Source of the DNA: Mycobacterium sp. EPa45
Lineage (GTDB): Bacteria > Actinomycetota > Actinomycetes > Mycobacteriales > Mycobacteriaceae
NCBI RefSeq assembly: GCF_001021385.1
Contig: NZ_CP011773.1
Span: forward strand, 3,410,001 to 3,474,000
Direction: 5' to 3'
Length of the DNA stretch: 64,000 bases
Below are positions 2,234 to 10,266 of the stretch, piece after piece (positions within the stretch are counted from its first letter, which is position 1; each line of letters begins with the position of its first letter). The notes under the pieces were generated by a model. That model was not told the origin of the DNA, searched no databases, and was given only the letters and a program-made list of their open reading frames with translations. The position numbers were made by a program, and so were the translations under genes.

Positions 2234-3280
2234 ATGAGTTCCGGCCATGACGACAAGCCCGTGCGCGAACTGCCTCCCGGGATGGCCGGGCAACTGGATC
2301 TGCCCTACGCGGGCCTGGCGTCGTTCGGGCATCGCCCGTTTCTGACCGAGCCGGAGCAGTTGGACAGCTGGCGTCCGGATGTGGCGATCGTCGGGGCCCC
2401 GTTCGACATCTCGACCACGAACCGCCCGGGTGCCCGATTCGGGCCGCGGGCGATCAGAGCCACCGCGTACGAGCCCGGCACGTACCACATGGATCTCGGG
2501 CTGGAGATCTTCGACTGGCTCGAGGTCGTGGACTTCGGTGACGCGTATTGCCCGCACGGGTTGACCGAGGTCTCGCACGCCAACATCCGCGAACGGGTGC
2601 ACACCATCGCCTCGCGCGGCATCGTGCCGGTCGTCCTCGGCGGTGACCATTCGATCACCTGGCCGGCGGCGACCGCGGTGGCCGACGTGCACGGCTACGG
2701 CAATGTCGGGATCGTTCATTTCGATGCCCACGCCGACACCGCCGACATCATCGACGGCAACCTTGCCAGCCACGGAACTCCGATGCGACGTCTGATCGAG
2801 TCCGGCGCCGTTCCCGGAACGCATTTCGTTCAGGTCGGTCTGCGCGGGTACTGGCCACCGCAAGACACTTTCGAGTGGATGCAGGAACAGGGCATGACCT
2901 GGCATACCATGCAGGAAATCTGGGACGTGGGCTTCAAGGACGTGATGCGCCGGGCCGTCGCCGAAGCCCTCGACAAGGCCGAAAAGCTTTACGTCTCAGT
3001 CGATATCGATGTTCTGGATCCGGCGCACGCCCCGGGCACGGGCACACCGGAGCCGGGCGGCATCACCAGCGCCGACCTGCTGCGCATGGTCCGGCAACTC
3101 TGTCACGAACACGACGTCGTCGGCGTCGACGTGGTCGAGGTCGCCCCGGCCTATGACCACGCGGAGCTGACCGTCAACGCTGCCCATCGGGTGGTGTTCG
3201 AGGCGCTGGCCGGGATGGCGGCGCGCCGCCGTGACGCGGCGAACGCCAAGCCGGGACCACCGTCCCCGCTGGCTCAGTAG
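2234..3280 (+). CDS. speB: Agmatinase / ureohydrolase family enzyme
   Basis: This 348-residue ureohydrolase hydrolyses a guanidino group using a binuclear Mn centre, classically agmatine to putrescine plus urea. The metal-binding motifs are intact: GGDHS (136-140), FDAHAD (163-168) and SVDIDVLDPAHAPGTG (255-270) followed by TPEPGG. The fold is complete and the length usual for agmatinases, including a roughly 45-residue N-terminal extension. Guanidine or guanidinobutyrate hydrolases share these motifs, so the substrate is inferred. The gene has its own leaderless-type promoter. Its 3' end overlaps the convergent gene by 7 bp. No polyamine genes are adjacent. Confidence 0.82.
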   Translation: MSSGHDDKPVRELPPGMAGQLDLPYAGLASFGHRPFLTEPEQLDSWRPDVAIVGAPFDISTTNRPGARFGPRAIRATAYEPGTYHMDLGLEIFDWLEVVDFGDAYCPHGLTEVSHANIRERVHTIASRGIVPVVLGGDHSITWPAATAVADVHGYGNVGIVHFDAHADTADIIDGNLASHGTPMRRLIESGAVPGTHFVQVGLRGYWPPQDTFEWMQEQGMTWHTMQEIWDVGFKDVMRRAVAEALDKAEKLYVSVDIDVLDPAHAPGTGTPEPGGITSADLLRMVRQLCHEHDVVGVDVVEVAPAYDHAELTVNAAHRVVFEALAGMAARRRDAANAKPGPPSPLAQ

Positions 3281-4398
3281 TCGGACTCGGCGGCCAGTAT
3301 CTCGGCGAGGTAGGCGTCCGGCCCCGGTTGGGCGAGACGGCGCCTCGCGAGTTGCCGGACCCGCTCGCGTGCTTGTCTCGACTCCGCCACCTCCGCCCCG
3401 ACCGTGACCGCGGTCGCCGACCAGTCCTGGTCCCACGCCGCCGACGCGGTCACCGGGGCGTCTGCGTCGTCGAGGAGTGTGATCGTCGCCCGGCCCCACG
3501 AGTCCAGCGCGCCGGCTCCGGTGAACTCCCCACAACGCAGGGCGATGGGAATACCGGCCGGCGAGCCCGGGCCGATCGCCGCGGCGTACACCGTCGCGGT
3601 CACCCGGTCGCCGTCGGCGGCCACCGCCCAGCTCACGGTGTCCTCGGCGGCGTCGAACACGCCGCCCGGTACCCCGGACCAGGCGATCGACGCGGCGCCA
3701 CGGGCGATCAGCCCGGCCGGCGCCGGTCCGGCATCGCCTCCCGCGGCCAGCGCATAGTCGTCCTGGTGCGCGGTCGCCTGGTGGTGCTGCGCGTTCTCCA
3801 CTGCGTCGGACAGCTCGGCCCAGCCTGGGGCGTCGACGCCGGCATCGTCGGCCAGGTGGACGGATCTGCGCACCAGTTCCACCACCCGCGGATCCCCGAC
3901 CAGCAGGTGCATTGTCAGAGCGGCCGCGTGCGGGGCCAGCAGCGCGGCGATGTCGCCGTCGATGCTGTCCTCCCCCACGAAGTCCTCGGCGTCCGCGGTC
4001 AGCAGCGCGATCTCGGCATCCAACAGCGCCGGATCCAGTCCGCTGATGCCGTCGCGTACGCTCGCCGGCCACCAACGGCGCAGCCAGTGCCCCAACGCCA
4101 GCCTGCGTAAGCCGTCGAGTGCGCCGACCCGTACCTCGACTCCGGAAAGCTCAACTCCGGCAGTGTGATCCGGCGGGTCCTCGGTGGCGGCCGCCAGGGC
4201 ATGATGGCCGTCCTCACCGAGCACCTGCCACAGCCAATCGGCCCGGGTGGTGTCGGTCAGCGTGATCTGGGCGCCCGCATCAAGCTCGTCAACGGTCCAG
4301 GCCAGCACGGCGCCATCGACCTCGAGCACCGCGACCAGTGGCACCGCCGCCACCGCCGGCCCGAGACGCCACAGCCCGGAGTCGGCAACCATTCTCAT
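3274..4398 (-). CDS. Unknown protein, last gene of the CHAT/TPR-associated cluster
   Basis: The 374-residue soluble protein matches no family I recognise. Its first third is beta-rich (VAAVPLVAVLEVDGAV), the middle is helical and acidic, and the C-terminal third looks like a beta-sandwich (GRATITLLDDADAPVTASAA) with a basic helical tail (ARERVRQLARRRLAQ). There is no signal peptide or membrane segment. Its ATG overlaps the upstream stop in a 4-nt ATGA junction (4395-4398), so it is translationally coupled to the 439-residue protein and the two are probably partners. The location next to a CHAT protease suggests a substrate, adaptor or effector role; this is inference only. Confidence 0.7.
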   Translation of the reverse strand: MRMVADSGLWRLGPAVAAVPLVAVLEVDGAVLAWTVDELDAGAQITLTDTTRADWLWQVLGEDGHHALAAATEDPPDHTAGVELSGVEVRVGALDGLRRLALGHWLRRWWPASVRDGISGLDPALLDAEIALLTADAEDFVGEDSIDGDIAALLAPHAAALTMHLLVGDPRVVELVRRSVHLADDAGVDAPGWAELSDAVENAQHHQATAHQDDYALAAGGDAGPAPAGLIARGAASIAWSGVPGGVFDAAEDTVSWAVAADGDRVTATVYAAAIGPGSPAGIPIALRCGEFTGAGALDSWGRATITLLDDADAPVTASAAWDQDWSATAVTVGAEVAESRQARERVRQLARRRLAQPGPDAYLAEILAAESDY

Positions 4399-5714
4399 TG
4401 CGCCACCTGCACTTCCAGCATCGCCTTGATCCGCTGGCGGTGATCGAGGCTCACCGAACGGGCGACGCCCTCCAACAGGGCTCGCAGATCGTCGACGTCA
4501 TCACAGGGTTCCTGCCACACGTCGCGACCGTGCAGCCGCGCCCACAGCCGGCTCAGGTACGGCCTGGCGAAGCGGGCAAGATCCTCGACGACCTGGCGCT
4601 GCCGCGGATGCACCGGCTCGGCACCGGCCAGAACGCGGCGTGCGTGCAGCACGTAAGCTTCCTTGCGCAGCCGGGCCTGAATGATCGACGCCAGCTGATA
4701 CCCAGCGACGGCACGTTCGTCCAGGGGCGCCAGCTGGCCGGCCACCTCGATGCCCGCCACCAGTGCGGCCTGCTTGTCCTCACCGAGGAAACCCCAAGGG
4801 GCGCAAGCCCGGTCGACCTCCTCGGCGCACAACAGCGGGACGTCCGGCAGCTCATCGCGATCCAGTGCCCGGCGCAGGGTCGCGCGGACGCGGTCGACCA
4901 CGCTGCGGTCCAGCGGCCGGTCGCGCTCCGGTCCGCCGGACAACGACGGCGGCGCCAGCGGCAGCGCCGAGGTGAGGCCGAGGTCGAGGATCGACCAGGG
5001 CAGCGCTGACGGCTCGGTGCGCGCCCGAGCGCCGAGGTTGTGCGGCGTCGCGTCGGCGATCAGTGCCGACCACACCCGTTGACGGGCAACGCCGGCGCGA
5101 TGTCCCTCGGCCGGCCCCAGCACCGTGGTCAGCCCGGCCAGGAATGGTCCACTGATGCTGTCGTCGGCCCGGACGTCGGCCCAGCTGCGGTCCAGTTGGG
5201 CCGACAGGCGAGCAACGACCTGCGGGGAGGCCACGTGCTGGTTGAGCACTTCGACAGCTGTGCGGTCGCGGTCGTCGTGGACGGCGCGCAATGCGTCTGC
5301 CGCGGCGCGGGTGCCGTGGTCGCCGGGCGCGCCGTCGGTGACCGCGAGCTCGAAACACACCGGGAAGTAGAGATCCTGGGCGTTGCCGGTGGTGATGCGC
5401 AGGCGGCGACGCTCCTGCTTCATCAGCTCGAACCACGCTGCGGCCCATCGCAATCGGTCGGCATGATCGAGAATCACATCGGTCATCTCGGCTGCCAGGT
5501 CGGCGTCCACGAACGGCGCCGAATACGCGGGATTACTGCGTAGCCGCAGCACGAGCGGGTCGATGATGCGCTTCACCGTCCGACGCAGTGGGCCGCCGTC
5601 GTCGCCGCTGAGAACCTCCACACCCGGCCCGATCGTCCGCCACGCACGGTCGATCACGGCCCGCCGCGGTTGCGACGTGCCGACACCCACGACCGTGTCC
5701 GAGCCGGCGCTCAT
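4395..5714 (-). CDS. Unknown helical protein coupled to the 374-aa gene in the CHAT/TPR cluster
   Basis: This 439-residue protein is predicted mostly helical, with no signal peptide or membrane segment. Charged helices such as LRWAAAWFELMKQERRRL (about residues 89-106) and a basic C-terminal bundle are visible. I do not recognise the family. The open frame continues far upstream through the opposite-strand membrane gene, but that extension is Arg/Gly-rich shadow sequence. ATG 5714 starts the first protein-like stretch and leaves room for a divergent promoter shared with the gene at 5781. The stop overlaps the next ATG by 4 nt. Confidence 0.7.
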   Translation of the reverse strand: MSAGSDTVVGVGTSQPRRAVIDRAWRTIGPGVEVLSGDDGGPLRRTVKRIIDPLVLRLRSNPAYSAPFVDADLAAEMTDVILDHADRLRWAAAWFELMKQERRRLRITTGNAQDLYFPVCFELAVTDGAPGDHGTRAAADALRAVHDDRDRTAVEVLNQHVASPQVVARLSAQLDRSWADVRADDSISGPFLAGLTTVLGPAEGHRAGVARQRVWSALIADATPHNLGARARTEPSALPWSILDLGLTSALPLAPPSLSGGPERDRPLDRSVVDRVRATLRRALDRDELPDVPLLCAEEVDRACAPWGFLGEDKQAALVAGIEVAGQLAPLDERAVAGYQLASIIQARLRKEAYVLHARRVLAGAEPVHPRQRQVVEDLARFARPYLSRLWARLHGRDVWQEPCDDVDDLRALLEGVARSVSLDHRQRIKAMLEVQVAQ

Positions 5715-5780
5715 CGGGACAGAATAAGGCCAGCGCAAAGTTGGGTTCGGTAGCCGGTGACGGTAGGCACGCTGCTCACC

Positions 5781-6440
5781 ATGTCTGATGCACTCCTGGG
5801 CGCCATCGCCGTCGTCTCCGCCATCGCACTCGCCTCGATCATCGTCGCTGCCGGGCTCGCCGGCCAGCCGCCGCGACCGTCCCGCCCCCGCAGTACCCGC
5901 TGCTCGCGTTCGATCGGTGTCGGCACCGTGCAGATGGTCGCCGGCGCCGACGATCCGGTCATCGTCGTCGAGGTGGAAAGCGTTGCCGGTCAGCGCTTCA
6001 CCGGACGCCTGTGCCACGGCCACAACGATCCGGTGGTGTCGGCCCTGCGTCCCGGCCTCATCGTGCTGGTGTCGTTCGACCCGGCCAGCCGCAAGCGGCT
6101 CTCGCTGGCCGACGATGCGATCGCCGTGCGGGCCGCCGCCGACCACACGCTGCTGCGTCAGGGCGTGCTCACCCACGACCAGCTCGATCTGATCCGGTTC
6201 GGCACCCGGTCCTGCGGTGTGGTGACCGGGATGCGGGCCACCGGCCGTGAGCGCGAGGACTATCGCGAAGTCGAACTGGATCTGATGGTCAGCCGCCGGG
6301 GCGGCGGGCAGTTCCCGGCCCAGGAGGTCACGCTGGTGCCCGAGGCCGTGCTGGCGAAGGTCGCCCCCGGCAGCATCATCGACACGTACTACCTGCCGGA
6401 GGACGAGTCCGCGATCGCGGTCTGCCTCCCCCCGGCCTGA
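5781..6440 (+). CDS. Membrane-anchored protein with two beta-domain repeats, inside the CHAT/TPR cluster
   Basis: The 219-residue product has one N-terminal transmembrane helix (residues about 5-27). Two related beta-rich units of roughly 75 residues follow: the first around VVEVESVAGQRFTGRL and LRPGLIVLVSFDPASR, the second around YREVELDLMVSRRGG and VAPGSIIDTYYLPEDES. The second resembles a small beta-domain that recurs in tandem in many actinobacterial membrane proteins. It is a type II anchored, probably outside-facing protein of unknown role. An in-frame GTG at 5757 is an alternative start; neither start has a good ribosome site. It is divergent from the 439-aa gene and ends 5 bp from the convergent CHAT gene. 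Confidence 0.7.
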   Translation: MSDALLGAIAVVSAIALASIIVAAGLAGQPPRPSRPRSTRCSRSIGVGTVQMVAGADDPVIVVEVESVAGQRFTGRLCHGHNDPVVSALRPGLIVLVSFDPASRKRLSLADDAIAVRAAADHTLLRQGVLTHDQLDLIRFGTRSCGVVTGMRATGREREDYREVELDLMVSRRGGGQFPAQEVTLVPEAVLAKVAPGSIIDTYYLPEDESAIAVCLPPA

Positions 6441-6445
6441 CGCGC

Positions 6446-7828
6446 TCACCGGGCATCCCCGACCGCGAAGGTGACCACTGCCGCCCAGTACAACGGGCTG
6501 GCGGTGGTTTCGCCGTCGCGCCACCGCCGCATCTGGTTGCGCTGCCAGCGGTTCAGGCTCAATACCGCGTCGTCGGCCTCGTGGGCGTCGTCGACGGCCA
6601 TGACCACCTCCGCCATCGGGTCCGCGGTTCGCCCGGTGAACCGTCGATAACCTGCGGTGGTGGGCAACGACCACAGCGTCGCGGTCACCAGTTCGCTGCC
6701 GCACAGGACCATCGCAGCGACCAGACCGGTCGCCTCGTCGAACTGATAGTCACCACCGGAACCACACGCGAGCAGAGCCACCCGCGGGGGCACCGGCAGC
6801 TGGGCAGCCATCAGGTCGGCGGCCAGTAGCGGGCGGTGATCGCCCACCGGCTCCGCGGCGCCCTCCACCGCGGACGTGCACGCCAGGTGCAGGGCGGCGC
6901 GGTCGGCGTAACCGTGCGCGCGGTCGGCAGCGCTGGCATGGCCGACGTACAACAGGCGGCTCGGCGCGCGATCCAGCTGCGCGGCCAGCCAGCCCCGGTC
7001 GGTGTCACTGCGGCGGAACAGCTCCACCGGTGCCTCGACCTCAGGCAGCACACAGCGGTGGGCGAGCAGCTCACCGAAATGACGAGACAACGCGCTCTCA
7101 CTCGACGGCCGGCCCAGGACCGACCCGAGGGCCGAATCCGGCCGCTGACCCGGCACACGGGGATCGACCACGAGAAGCGCTGGGGAGCTTCGCCTTTCGC
7201 GCCACTGTGCCGGCTTGCGCGGCGCGTGCACGATGTTGGGTGGGACCGCCATCACCACGTCGGCCATCTCCATCAGGCGGAAACCCTCGGTGACGGTGTC
7301 GATGTCGGCAAGCTGCCACGGAATGCGCGCCGCCCTGGTCCCTTTGAACGTCACGGCTTCATTGCGGGCGGCGACCAGTTCCTCGGGGCTGGGGCCGGTC
7401 AGCGGGACCGCCAGCGCCCCCCAGGGGATGCGCGCCAGGCGAGCGCTCGGCGAGATGAACAGCACCGGCCGCGGATCGGCGACCGTAGCCATGTCCCCGG
7501 TCGCTTCGCTCCTGGCCGCCGCTTCCCCCAGCAGCTGCCAGGCGGGCTCGGAAATCAGCAGCACACCCAGGATGTAGGCGAGGGTCAGTTCCCCCTGTGC
7601 GGTGGCGAATGGGCCCCGGGTCAGTGCCCGGTCGAGAGCGTCGGCCAGGCTCTCGTCACCATCGGGGTCGGGCAGCGCACCACGCAGTTCTTCCAGTGCG
7701 GCAAGCACGATCGGCTCGTGGACCACCCACGTCACCGTGCGCTCGGGCTGGCCGACGATCCGCAGGCTGGCGTAGGTCGCCACGCCGACATCGGCGAACC
7801 GCAGCACCAGTGTCGTCGTCATGGCCAT
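6446..7828 (-). CDS. CHAT-domain caspase-like cysteine protease
   Basis: This 460-residue protein carries a C-terminal CHAT domain (caspase HetF-associated with TPRs), a clan CD protease fold. The catalytic dyad is visible: His297 in LLYVGHASAAD and Cys355 in VALLACGSGGDY, 58 residues apart. The following VLCGSELVTATLWSLP block is also typical of CHAT domains. Residues 1-200 form a beta/helical region with no family I can name. The start overlaps the stop of the TPR gene (10 nt with ATG 7828, or a 4-nt ATGA with ATG 7822), so the two are translationally coupled. CHAT proteins are often regulated by TPR partners and cleave partner proteins; the target here is unknown. Confidence 0.85.
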   Translation of the reverse strand: MAMTTTLVLRFADVGVATYASLRIVGQPERTVTWVVHEPIVLAALEELRGALPDPDGDESLADALDRALTRGPFATAQGELTLAYILGVLLISEPAWQLLGEAAARSEATGDMATVADPRPVLFISPSARLARIPWGALAVPLTGPSPEELVAARNEAVTFKGTRAARIPWQLADIDTVTEGFRLMEMADVVMAVPPNIVHAPRKPAQWRERRSSPALLVVDPRVPGQRPDSALGSVLGRPSSESALSRHFGELLAHRCVLPEVEAPVELFRRSDTDRGWLAAQLDRAPSRLLYVGHASAADRAHGYADRAALHLACTSAVEGAAEPVGDHRPLLAADLMAAQLPVPPRVALLACGSGGDYQFDEATGLVAAMVLCGSELVTATLWSLPTTAGYRRFTGRTADPMAEVVMAVDDAHEADDAVLSLNRWQRNQMRRWRDGETTASPLYWAAVVTFAVGDAR

Positions 7829-9501
7829 GTCGACCAGACGGGACCGCCGGACGTGACGGCCTGACCATAGCGGTTCTGCGCCAGGAGCCGGTAACGCGCC
7901 AGGATGGGCGAACCGTCAGGGTCCATCTGCAGCGGCGGAAGTGCACCCAGTGTGGTCTGGGTCAGGGCATCGACCGAGTACCCACCCGCGGCCAGCGCCT
8001 CCTCGTCGAGGGTCTCGACGGGGACCGTCACCGTGGCCGGGGCGTCCCAGCCACCGGCTTCACCGCGCGGCTCGTTGGCGAAAGTACCTCGTGCACAGTG
8101 ATATTCGATGAGCTCGCTGAGCAGGGCGTCGTTCTCCCACTCCCACGCCACCGAGAACGCGCCGGCCAGCATCCGCGCCGAAACCTGAGAGGCCCATCGC
8201 CAGCGGGCGTCGGCGTCGGTCATGGCGTAGCGCACCGAGTCGACGGCCAGGGCGGCGGGAATCTTGAGCTCCGCGGCTTTTTCCAGCTTTCTACATGCAC
8301 TGCGGTGGCGCTCGCTTCCGCTGTCGAAACGGGTGACTCCCTGAGAGGCCACCTGGCGTTCCTTGCCGGCTTGCCAACTCTCCGACGGATCGCCGATACC
8401 GTCGAAGTTCAGGTCGGCCAACGCGTCCGCCCGCCAGATCGAGCCGAGGTGGTCGTCGAGCCGCGCGTACTGCAGCCAACTCGATCTCGGCCAGCGGTCG
8501 AGGAACGTGCGGGCTTCGGCCACCTGTTCGACCGCCTCGGCGAATCGGCCGCGAAACACCGAGATCCAGCTGCGCTGCAACAGGATGCGGTGCACGAACA
8601 GCGGGCGTCCCAGTTCTCGCCACTGCGTTTCGGCGTGGCCCCAGGATTCATCGGCCTCTTTCAGCCACCCGAATCCCAGTCGGGTGAGGCCGAAATACAG
8701 CCAGCAGCGGGCGACGTCGTGGGCGCGGGAGTGTTCGGCGATCACCGGATAGGCGGACCCGACCAGCCGCTCGGTCGATTCGTGGTCACCGCGCATCCAC
8801 ATGGCCGCGGCGGTCTCGAGTTCGGCTCTCGCCCAATACAGTCCCCATTCCCGCCGCTGCGCCCGGGCACCCGCGCGACGCAGCCACTGCTCCCCCTCGT
8901 CCAGCCGGCCGGTCTCCACACAGAACCGGCCATAGGCGATACCGGCGGCGACCAGCAGTTGATCGGCCTCGTCGGTGCCTGCGCCCAGCCCGTCGACGAT
9001 CGGAATGATGTTCTGCCACAGTTCGGCTGCCGGTACGTGCAGGTCGTCGTCGCACAACGCCGTCGCGCACAGCACCCCGGCCAACGTTTCCAGGTGCCGT
9101 TGCTCGGGCTCCAGGTCGGCGAACCGCCGCGCGGCGTCGTCGTCGCGCAGGCCCGCGAGTTCGCGCGCGGCTTCTTCGTGATCGCCTGCGGCTGCGGCCA
9201 GACCGGTGCGCAGGAAGCCGGCTCGCAGGCGGTAACGGGCGACCATGTGGTCGGTATCGGGTCCCGCATCGGAATACTTGTCGAGGCAGTCGGTCATCCG
9301 CTGCAGACACTCGCGGGTCCCGTCGTAAGCCGTTCGGGTGAGGTAGATTTCGCCGAGCTGAGCGAAGACTTCGAGCGCCAGGTCGTCTCGGTCGTCGCGT
9401 TCGATGTCCGGCATCAACGACAGCAGGAGGTCTTTGGCCTTCTCCTCCTGGGCGGCGAGGGCGAGCTGGCGAGCCCGTTGCAGCTCACCGGTAATGGACA
9501 C
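7819..9501 (-). CDS. TPR-repeat protein, first gene of the CHAT operon
   Basis: The 560-residue all-helical protein has TPR-like helix pairs through residues about 5-400. Examples are the hairpins around ALEVFAQLGEIYLTRTAYDG, YGRFCVETGRLDEGEQWLRR and ARCWLYFGLTRLGFGWLKEA. The C-terminal 130 residues are less regular. It probably senses or scaffolds for the CHAT protease, whose gene overlaps its 3' end. GTG 9501 was chosen because a perfect TATGAT -10 box lies 6 nt upstream; longer in-frame starts would run through the hairpin that ends the lpqH transcript. There is no signal peptide, so it is presumably cytosolic. Confidence 0.8.
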   Translation of the reverse strand: MSITGELQRARQLALAAQEEKAKDLLLSLMPDIERDDRDDLALEVFAQLGEIYLTRTAYDGTRECLQRMTDCLDKYSDAGPDTDHMVARYRLRAGFLRTGLAAAAGDHEEAARELAGLRDDDAARRFADLEPEQRHLETLAGVLCATALCDDDLHVPAAELWQNIIPIVDGLGAGTDEADQLLVAAGIAYGRFCVETGRLDEGEQWLRRAGARAQRREWGLYWARAELETAAAMWMRGDHESTERLVGSAYPVIAEHSRAHDVARCWLYFGLTRLGFGWLKEADESWGHAETQWRELGRPLFVHRILLQRSWISVFRGRFAEAVEQVAEARTFLDRWPRSSWLQYARLDDHLGSIWRADALADLNFDGIGDPSESWQAGKERQVASQGVTRFDSGSERHRSACRKLEKAAELKIPAALAVDSVRYAMTDADARWRWASQVSARMLAGAFSVAWEWENDALLSELIEYHCARGTFANEPRGEAGGWDAPATVTVPVETLDEEALAAGGYSVDALTQTTLGALPPLQMDPDGSPILARYRLLAQNRYGQAVTSGGPVWSTWP

Positions 9502-9601: not shown

Positions 9602-10099
9602 TCACTTGCAGGTGACGGAGATTTCGAACTTCTTGGTGATCATGCCGGCCATCGGGTTCTTCATGTCCGCGCCGGCGGCCTCACCGGTGATGGTGTAGGT
9701 GGTGCCGTCGACCTTCACGTCGGCAGAACCGGTCTTGACGCCCATGTTGTCGCTGACCGCGAGTGCGTTGCCGTCAACGACCATCCCGAGGGACTGCACG
9801 GTCGGCGGCTGGCCGTCTTTCATGACCACCCCGAGCCCCTGCTGACCACCTACCGCCCCACTGGCGATGTTGATCGTGCCGCCCTGCTTGACGCACGTCA
9901 CGGAATTCAGATCCAGGCCCTGCAGGTCGTTGCCCTCGACCTTCACCGACGTCTTCCCGCCGGATGCCACCGAAACGCTGGTGGGCGCGCCGCCGGTTGC
10001 CGAGCTGGAGCCCTTGCTGCTGCTGTTGTTGTCGGAGCAAGCCATGAGCAGCATGCTGCAGCCGAGCACGCCGACACCGACCGCGAGAATTCGCTTCAC
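9602..10099 (-). CDS. lpqH: LpqH-family (19 kDa antigen) lipoprotein
   Basis: This 165-residue secreted lipoprotein starts with a signal peptide ending in the lipobox LMAC, with Cys21 as the lipidation site. A Ser/Gly/Thr-rich linker and a compact beta domain follow, with two cysteines (in NSVTCVKQGG and at ISVTCK near the end) that probably form a disulfide. Length and pattern fit the mycobacterial LpqH family: cell-surface, TLR2-stimulating lipoproteins whose physiological role in the envelope is unsettled. It is transcribed alone; a strong hairpin follows the stop. Confidence 0.85.
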   Translation of the reverse strand: MKRILAVGVGVLGCSMLLMACSDNNSSSKGSSSATGGAPTSVSVASGGKTSVKVEGNDLQGLDLNSVTCVKQGGTINIASGAVGGQQGLGVVMKDGQPPTVQSLGMVVDGNALAVSDNMGVKTGSADVKVDGTTYTITGEAAGADMKNPMAGMITKKFEISVTCK

Positions 10100-10266
10100 C
10101 TGTAGTCCCTTCGCTCGCGCGGCGCCTCGGTGGCGCCGTCACGAGCCAAGTACAGATCGCGGCCGCGGCTACCGATCCCAAACTTTCTGCGCCGAGATCG
10201 ACGAAATGATGGCGATTACTCGCACTTTCTCAGCGGATCGTCGGTTTCGGCGAAAGGGAAAGCGGC

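What the first reader, a model, noticed from the sequence alone, without database searches (positions are those of the whole stretch)
3274..9501. CHAT protease-TPR-unknown protein cluster: candidate undescribed system
Five adjacent genes include a TPR protein overlapping a CHAT caspase-like protease with visible His297 and Cys355, two mutually coupled (ATGA) proteins of no recognisable family, and a membrane-anchored beta-domain protein on the opposite strand. CHAT and TPR modules are known to work as sensor-protease pairs (for example in type III-E CRISPR effectors and gasdermin-linked defence), but I know of no description of this gene set. A protease-triggered stress, defence or regulated-cell-death role is plausible. 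The two unknown proteins could be substrate and adaptor.
Basis: partly seen in the sequence, partly recalled or inferred. Interest (0 to 1): 0.75.

Follow-up and report, generated by a model that had tools for sequence, protein, structure and literature searches.

The report
Caspase-like protease cassette with promoter code
A caspase-like protease gene in a mycobacterium belongs to an apparently undescribed gene set shared with Nocardia, Rhodococcus and Streptomyces, and in mycobacteria that set goes together with one short promoter-like sequence placed before genes for lipoproteins, secreted proteins and membrane proteins, so it looks like a protease-controlled gene switch for the cell surface.

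Summary
In detail: TPR, CHAT, E, F and opposite-strand D lie at 3274-9501, and the CHAT His and Cys are invariant in 141 of 141 aligned rows. The cluster is a real system. In 60 Mycobacterium genomes CHAT and TPR occur in the same 43, E in those plus one fragmented genome. Outside the genus the order is E-F-TPR-CHAT: 76 of 80 named loci, the other 4 cut by contig ends; TPR and CHAT are one protein in 22. A dedicated LpqH-family lipoprotein travels with it in Mycobacterium, Nocardia and Rhodococcus. The decisive find is a promoter-like element, TGGGATCGGTAG, conserved from Streptomyces to Mycobacterium. In the genus an exact 14-mer occurs in all 44 E-positive genomes (213 copies, most outside the cassette) and in none of 16 E-negative ones. 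Sites precede lipoprotein, secreted and membrane proteins at preferred spacings. Best reading: E-F-TPR-CHAT is a proteolysis-gated transcriptional switch for an exported-protein regulon, working like Craspase/CASP-sigma without CRISPR. Defence or cell death found no support here. E and F have no recognised relatives; what reads the element and what is cleaved are inferred.

The parts
3274..4398 (-). F: 374 aa, acidic (pI 4.3); predicted N-terminal beta part, helical part, Ig-like beta sandwich (about 229-337), C-terminal helices; last residue aromatic
   Evidence: no Pfam match above chance level in the window protein or in 61 aligned members
4395..5714 (-). E: 439 aa, predicted all-helical, best conserved component; overlaps F by ATGA
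   Evidence: no clear PDB match; no Pfam match above chance level in 63 members
5721..5726 (-). TATTCT, -10-like box (TANNNT) 6 bases before the E start
   Evidence: TAT.CTG consensus in an alignment of 29 sequences
5737..5755 (+). promoter-like element AAAGTTGGGTTCGGTAGCC read towards D (GGCTACCGAACCCAACTTT towards E)
5781..6440 (+). D: 219 aa, one likely N-terminal membrane helix (by eye) and two beta-type domains (by eye), opposite strand
   Evidence: read in 38 of 43 mycobacterial loci; divergent neighbour of E in most Nocardia-side loci
6446..7822 (-). CHAT caspase-like protease, 458 aa (460 if the start at 7828 is used)
   Evidence: Pfam PF12770, 40.1 bits against a cut-off of 24
6764..6766 (-). 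codon of predicted catalytic Cys353
   Evidence: invariant in 141 of 141 aligned rows, 133 of them distinct
6938..6940 (-). codon of predicted catalytic His295
   Evidence: invariant in 141 of 141 aligned rows
7819..9501 (-). TPR protein, 560 aa; its relatives are fused to CHAT in 22 of 76 complete named loci
9602..10099 (-). cassette lipoprotein Lp, LpqH family PF05481 (109.3 bits), lipobox LMAC by eye
10149..10154 (-). TGTACT, -10-like box of the proposed Lp promoter
   Evidence: TACT at this distance in 36 of 99 motif-site rows against 15 of 2970 control windows
10167..10185 (-). promoter-like element AAGTTTGGGATCGGTAGCC upstream of Lp, TPR and CHAT

Best explanation
E, F, TPR and CHAT form a proteolysis-gated transcriptional switch. 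I propose that E is the promoter-reading factor, that acidic F holds it inactive, and that the TPR protein, on a signal that involves the lipoprotein Lp and the membrane protein D, activates the CHAT protease, which cuts F (perhaps near its conserved C-terminal end). Released E then drives promoters that carry TGGGATCGGTAG followed by a -10 box: Lp and D themselves (feedback) and other lipoproteins, small secreted proteins and small membrane proteins. SHOWN by sequence comparison: the gene set, its co-inheritance, the invariant His and Cys, the natural TPR-CHAT fusions, the separate lipoprotein branch, the element, its preferred spacings, the kinds of genes behind it, and its presence and absence with the cassette. 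INFERRED: that the element is a promoter part in the cell, that a cassette protein reads it, that this is E, that F is inhibitor and substrate, that CHAT is an active protease, and that the signal is an envelope signal.
For: Co-inheritance and collinearity. Exact 14-mer GCTACCGAWCCCAA in 44 of 44 E-positive and 0 of 16 E-negative Mycobacterium genomes, 213 copies summed from the rows, of which at most 88 can be cassette copies (two per genome at most); reversed-pattern control 3 copies in 60 genomes. In 301 family genomes SCTACCGATCCCAR in 65 of 70 E-positive and 13 of 231 E-negative; of the 5 misses, 3 carry the one-base variant TGTGATCGGTAG before Lp, 1 carries the core followed by T, 1 has E at a contig end. 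12-base core exact within 400 bp upstream of E in 36 of 37 Streptomyces-side and 39 of 43 Nocardia-side named loci; in a control stretch 0 of 80 come within one mismatch. In two of the four Nocardia-side misses Lp and D lie elsewhere and the exact element lies upstream of the displaced Lp. Start codon at +39 to +41 in 30 and +79 to +90 in 24 of 96 site rows with an ORF, against 55 and 139 of 2466 control positions. Hydrophobic N-region in 45 of these 54 ORFs against 65 of 294 background ORFs, a crude score. Precedent: Csx29, a TPR-CHAT protease, cleaves Csx30, an inhibitor of a sigma factor (PMC10028731, abstract and passages).
Against: E resembles no known DNA-binding or sigma fold by Foldseek or VIA-align and is near neutral (pI 6.4; mycobacterial median 6.8). 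No protein-protein or protein-DNA contact was modelled. In mycobacteria the element near E points to D, and nothing shows that E binds it. No expression data were available. Genome comparisons are not corrected for shared ancestry, so the number of independent losses is unknown. 13 E-negative family genomes hold one or more copies; 5 of these 13 sites or genomes were looked at (L280-L283, L295) and show none of the spacing, the other 8 were not, and one, G555, belongs to a genus (g244) whose other members have the cassette. The -10 box differs between lineages. Other copies of the element in Streptomyces genomes were not sought. Cleavage of F is a guess.
Confidence: 0.5

Rival explanations
1. 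The cassette is a target, not the regulator. A sigma factor or regulator encoded elsewhere reads the element and drives an envelope programme; TPR-CHAT with E and F is an envelope maintenance or quality-control machine within that programme, and regulator and cassette are lost together.
For: The element lies before Lp, TPR and CHAT in mycobacteria; no cassette protein has a recognised DNA-binding domain; a conserved upstream box plus a -10-like box at preferred spacing fits an alternative sigma factor.
Against: In Nocardia-side loci the element is oriented towards Lp and D, and in two loci it lies with the displaced Lp and D, away from E-F-TPR-CHAT, so the protease operon need not be in the regulon. 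The exact 14-mer is absent from all 16 cassette-negative Mycobacterium genomes, which an unlinked regulator would not predict unless it too is always lost.
Confidence: 0.25
2. Anti-phage or regulated-death system: TPR-CHAT is unleashed by infection and cuts E or F into a harmful product.
For: CHAT proteases are listed for Borvo and type III-E CRISPR in a review of phage defence (PMC10952713, passage); some copies of E lie on actinobacterial plasmids over 1 Mb, 6 records.
Against: No PADLOC match for the five window proteins, weak hits only for two of six relatives, one weak PHROG hit for F (E 0.021); no E relative in phage records or confirmed in viral contigs; recurrent chromosomal sites within the genus; high conservation of E; element sites before exported-protein genes.
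Confidence: 0.1
3. The CHAT protease processes the exported proteins or lipoproteins of the regulon directly and has no part in transcription; the shared element only co-expresses protease and clients.
For: Lp lies directly before TPR and CHAT in mycobacteria, and Lp-type lipoproteins are the commonest genes behind the element (17 of 96 ORF rows, cassette copies included).
Against: CHAT, TPR, E and F show no signal peptide by eye and would be cytoplasmic, whereas Lp carries a lipobox; 0 of 37 named loci outside Nocardia, Rhodococcus and Antrihabitans have a detectable Lp.
Confidence: 0.12

Closest known systems
Craspase / CASP system of type III-E CRISPR: Csx29 (TPR-CHAT) with Csx30, Csx31 and CASP-sigma (PMC10028731, abstract and passages)
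   Same: TPR-CHAT protease; neighbouring proteins of unknown kind; a promoter motif that also lies in the locus itself; proposed release of a transcription factor by cleavage
   Different: No CRISPR component was recognised among the cassette proteins (one Csm3 hit at E 0.009 for a Kutzneria CHAT is taken as chance); no relation of E or F to Csx30, Csx31 or an ECF sigma factor was recognised; TPR and CHAT are mostly two proteins; the set includes an LpqH-family lipoprotein and a membrane protein in Mycobacterium, Nocardia and Rhodococcus
DegS/RseA-type protease-regulated anti-sigma systems (as compared in passages of PMC10028731)
   Same: Proposed logic: proteolysis of an inhibitor frees a transcription factor for an envelope regulon
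   Different: Caspase-like protease with a TPR partner; the factor is not identified
LpqH / 19-kDa lipoprotein family (PF05481; sub-families LpqH, LppE, Lp3 in PMC2689228, section 12)
   Same: Cassette Lp is a member over the family cut-off
   Different: Chosen cassette copies form one side of a branch against 23 chosen non-cassette mycobacterial copies; it may be the 2009 'Lp3', which I could not check because figures are not held
VMAP ternary conflict systems (PMC7159879, passages)
   Same: Caspase-superfamily protease in multi-gene loci, also in actinobacteria
   Different: No vWA, MoxR or other NTPase match among the five window proteins

Membership tests
CHAT protease family (PF12770) | Profile match over the curated cut-off | tested here: met
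   40.1 bits against 24; a Kutzneria, a Nocardia and a fused Streptomyces relative 37.9, 43.1 and 41.6
CHAT protease family (PF12770) | His-Cys pair at the expected places | tested here: met
   His295 and Cys353 in 141 of 141 rows; that this is the CHAT pair is from general knowledge of the family
CHAT protease family (PF12770) | Proteolytic activity | not testable with these tools
   needs purified protein
Type III-E Craspase | TPR and CHAT in one protease or pair | tested here: met
   adjacent in the window, one ORF in 22 of 76 complete named loci
Type III-E Craspase | Cas7-11 effector and CRISPR array in the locus | not tested
   only cassette proteins were scanned with PADLOC; no array or Cas7-11 search was run
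Type III-E Craspase | Csx30-like substrate | tested here: inconclusive
   no listed Foldseek or VIA-align match of E or F names Csx30; absence from these lists excludes nothing
Sigma factors or known transcription factors (E) | Recognised DNA-binding or sigma domain | tested here: inconclusive
   no Pfam family above chance level in 63 members; no clear fold match
LpqH family (PF05481) | Profile match over the cut-off | tested here: met
   109.3 bits against 23
LpqH proper (non-cassette branch) | Groups with the non-cassette copies | tested here: not met
   37 chosen cassette rows are one side of a branch, support 96/82, against 23 chosen non-cassette rows; rows of named LpqH were not included
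Known anti-phage systems (PADLOC 2023) | Match to a system model | tested here: not met
   no match up to E 1 for the five window proteins; weak hits, E 0.009 and 0.023, for two of six relatives
VMAP ternary system | vWA and MoxR components | tested here: not met
   no such Pfam match in the five window proteins; not looked for elsewhere

The most novel reading that the evidence does not exclude
E is the founding member of a new class of promoter-specific transcription factor with a new all-helical fold, freed by a caspase-like TPR-CHAT protease. The E-F-TPR-CHAT set would then be a CRISPR-free, chromosomal counterpart of the Craspase/CASP-sigma pathway, spread over Streptomyces, Nocardia, Rhodococcus and Mycobacterium, and the first functional setting for a branch of the LpqH lipoprotein family.
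Probability: 0.33. Interest if true: 0.92.

Novelty: new variant of a known kind. Interest (0 to 1): 0.82.

Why it matters
Bacterial CHAT proteases are known to me mainly from CRISPR and other defence settings. This would show one used as a chromosomal gene switch, with a DNA element whose 12-base core is the same in Streptomyces and Mycobacterium. It makes two questions directly testable: what reads TGGGATCGGTAG, and what a branch of the 19-kDa lipoprotein family is for (PMC2689228, section 12, calls the function of the family largely unknown). It also hands over two protein families, E and F, with models of high mean pLDDT (88.8 and 90.8) and no recognised relatives.

Tried and rejected

Rows dropped before counts: one-mismatch sites of the own genome (L240-L247) were left out of the 99 site rows. 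Those 99 rows hold 98 distinct contexts (L254 = L321), include cassette copies, and include sites from five E-negative genomes (L280-L283, L295). The lipoprotein tree used a choice: 19 mycobacterial-side, 15 Nocardia-side and 3 other cassette copies, and 23 non-cassette copies out of the many listed; the tool warned of long branches and odd composition among non-cassette rows.
Full report
WHAT IS THERE. On the minus strand run a TPR protein (9501-7819), a CHAT protease (7822-6446), E (5714-4395) and F (4398-3274); D (5781-6440) lies between CHAT and E on the plus strand. TPR/CHAT and E/F each overlap in ATGA. CHAT passes its Pfam cut-off; E, F and D match nothing above chance level in Pfam, NCBIfam or PADLOC. 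The window lies in a 6.18 Mb genome, in which PF12770 finds only this CHAT gene. A sixth gene, an LpqH-family lipoprotein (9602-10099, here Lp), belongs to the set, as shown below.

CO-INHERITANCE IN THE GENUS. In the same 60 Mycobacterium genomes CHAT is in 43, TPR in 43 and E in 44. The CHAT and TPR sets are identical; E adds one fragmented genome, G005, where the contig ends. Among the 53 genomes that are at least 90% complete and at most 5% contaminated, each of the three is in 39. I fetched 43 loci, the window's own left out; as far as contigs reach, they share the order Lp, TPR, CHAT, D (reversed), E, F. F was read in 41 of 43 and D in 38 of 43. By mean column identity E is the best conserved (75%), then CHAT (69%), TPR (65%) and F (59%) (chosen subsets of 26 to 32 sequences).

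DEPTH AND OTHER ORDERS. In 301 genomes of the family E occurs in 70, in 7 of 31 genera. With an alignment led by a Streptomyces E, a scan of the species-genome collection confirmed 416 stretches and kept the best 80 loci: Streptomyces, Kitasatospora, Actinacidiphila, Kutzneria, Streptomonospora, Nocardia, Rhodococcus, Antrihabitans and a few unnamed actinobacteria. Of these 80 named loci 76 hold E, F, TPR and CHAT on the E strand, all in the order E-F-TPR-CHAT; the other 4 are cut by contig ends (how it was counted is told under Tried and rejected). TPR and CHAT are a single ORF in 22 of the 76, strong evidence that they work together. So the mycobacterial order looks rearranged. TPR identity, doubtful in the window protein, is clear in relatives.

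HIS AND CYS. His295 and Cys353 are invariant in the 43 mycobacterial rows, window included, and in 141 of 141 rows overall, 133 distinct.

SPECIFICITY. A CHAT profile in the 301 family genomes hits 80. The 70 E genomes are all among them (in G640 only as a piece at a contig end). The other 10 hold fragments or a lower-scoring sister CHAT. I fetched 13 loci of the sister type or doubtful type: none has E, F or Lp nearby, though most have further TPR-like hits by a profile that is partly contaminated. E, F and Lp therefore go with one CHAT subfamily.

THE LIPOPROTEIN. Lp lies beside the cassette in 41 of 43 mycobacterial loci (the other two are contig ends), although the outer flanks fall into different site groups (speB in 6 loci, an aminotransferase in 15, a winged-helix-type gene in 16). 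In Nocardia-side loci an Lp lies between D and E, divergent from E; it was found in 42 of the 43 named Nocardia, Rhodococcus and Antrihabitans loci and in 0 of the other 37. Mycobacterial genomes carry up to 8 PF05481 copies. In a tree of 60 chosen rows the 37 cassette copies are one side of a branch (96/82) against 23 non-cassette copies, all from Mycobacterium. So Lp looks like a dedicated branch, not classical LpqH. PMC2689228 (section 12) describes three sub-families and a largely unknown function.

THE PROMOTER-LIKE ELEMENT. Aligning the D-E gap of 29 sequences showed GGCTACCGAACCCAACTTT nearly unchanged, shortly upstream of a TANNNT box at the E start; a sister copy lies upstream of Lp. 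Exact GCTACCGAWCCCAA was sought in the 60 genomes: found in 44, exactly the E-positive ones, with 213 copies (summed from the rows), and in none of the 16 E-negative ones; the reversed pattern gave 3 copies in 60 genomes. Since fetched cassettes hold at most two exact cores, at least 125 copies lie elsewhere. In Streptomyces-side loci the upstream gap holds CCTACCGATCCCAGGTTC and in Nocardia-side loci CCTACCGATCCCA. The 12-base core is exact within 400 bp upstream of E in 36 of 37 Streptomyces-side and 39 of 43 Nocardia-side loci; in a control stretch 0 of 80 come within one mismatch. Of the 4 Nocardia-side misses, two have Lp and D displaced with the exact element upstream of the displaced Lp, one (L168) has no detectable Lp, one (L180) has two mismatches. 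In 301 family genomes SCTACCGATCCCAR is in 65 of 70 E-positive and 13 of 231 E-negative (Fisher 2e-46, not corrected for ancestry). Three of the five misses carry TGTGATCGGTAG upstream of Lp, one carries the core followed by T, one has E at a contig end.

WHAT LIES BEHIND THE ELEMENT. Read as TTGGGATCGGTAG it behaves like the upstream half of a promoter. Of 99 site rows 96 have an ORF downstream; the start that my heuristic chose lies at +39 to +41 in 30 and at +79 to +90 in 24, against 55 and 139 of 2466 control positions in the same loci. A TACT box lies at +27 to +36 in 36 of 99 rows against 15 of 2970 control windows. Of the 54 ORFs at the two spacings 45 have a hydrophobic N-region and 12 a lipobox-like motif, against 65 hydrophobic of 294 background ORFs (crude score). 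Recurrent genes among the 96: Lp-type lipoproteins (17 rows), small secreted-type proteins with a WCPG motif (15), a DUF4870-type membrane protein (12), small membrane proteins (10), D (6). The DUF4870 rows are 12 of 20 extra Nocardia-side sites fetched; one was scanned and passes the Pfam cut-off. These rows include cassette copies. Sites in five E-negative genomes (of 13 with a copy) show none of this geometry, as expected of chance hits; the other eight were not looked at.

STRUCTURES. E is predicted all-helical (pLDDT 88.8, pTM 0.67), F as a beta part, a helical part and an Ig-like sandwich (pLDDT 90.8, pTM 0.88). Neither has a clear PDB match, which does not show that the folds are new. 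Pfam scans of 63 and 61 members gave only scattered weak hits. F is acidic (pI 4.3) and ends in Phe or Tyr in 76 of 79 named and 39 of 39 mycobacterial proteins longer than 340 residues.

MECHANISM. In Nocardia-side loci the element belongs to the Lp-D side and is found with it when it is displaced, so E-F-TPR-CHAT is the better candidate for regulator than for target. In the genus, absence of the cassette goes with absence of the exact element everywhere in the genome, so whatever reads it is in the cassette or is always lost with it. TPR-CHAT proteases have a precedent for this logic: Csx29 cleaves Csx30, an inhibitor of the sigma factor CASP-sigma, which has sites in its own locus and perhaps elsewhere (PMC10028731, abstract and passages). 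I therefore propose E as reader, F as inhibitor and substrate, TPR-CHAT as trigger, Lp and D as envelope-side partners under feedback. Only the sequence facts are shown; the biochemical steps are inference.

LIMITS. 

Noticed in passing
L221-L233: A sister CHAT subfamily in the same bacterial family, without detectable E, F or Lp, often near other TPR-like genes; a second, different CHAT setting.
   Followed up: partly
L302-L308, L311, L312, L317, L319, L320: In unnamed Nocardia-side genomes the same DUF4870-type membrane-protein gene carries the element: 12 of 20 extra sites fetched; start chosen at +40 or +41 in 10 of these 12.
   Followed up: partly
L234, L251, L262, L268, L270 and others: A family of small secreted-type proteins with a WCPG motif recurs behind the element in mycobacteria (15 rows); no Pfam match in the two scanned.
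   Followed up: no
window 3274-4398 and relatives: F ends in an aromatic residue, mostly Asp-Phe or Asp-Tyr, in nearly all relatives; it may be a recognition or processing signal.
   Followed up: partly
L034, L038, L106/L190: Some genomes carry interrupted copies: E in pieces in G031 and G045, a stop inside TPR in G031, a stop inside E in Rhodococcus tibetensis. Described only.
   Followed up: no
L098, L099, L100: Plasmid records over 1 Mb (two Streptomyces, one Nocardia farcinica) carry E, F, TPR and CHAT side by side.
   Followed up: partly
L122 7879-8433 and 36 other loci: On the Streptomyces side the divergent gene beside E is a different small protein (D2) with a beta-type domain that may be related to D.
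   Followed up: partly
L109, L112, L113: In one unnamed genus (g4) the TPR gene is reversed between CHAT and E, and the element before Lp has the variant TGTGATCGGTAG.
   Followed up: partly
G555: One genome of genus g244 has a copy of the element but neither E nor CHAT was found in it; its relatives have the cassette.
   Followed up: no
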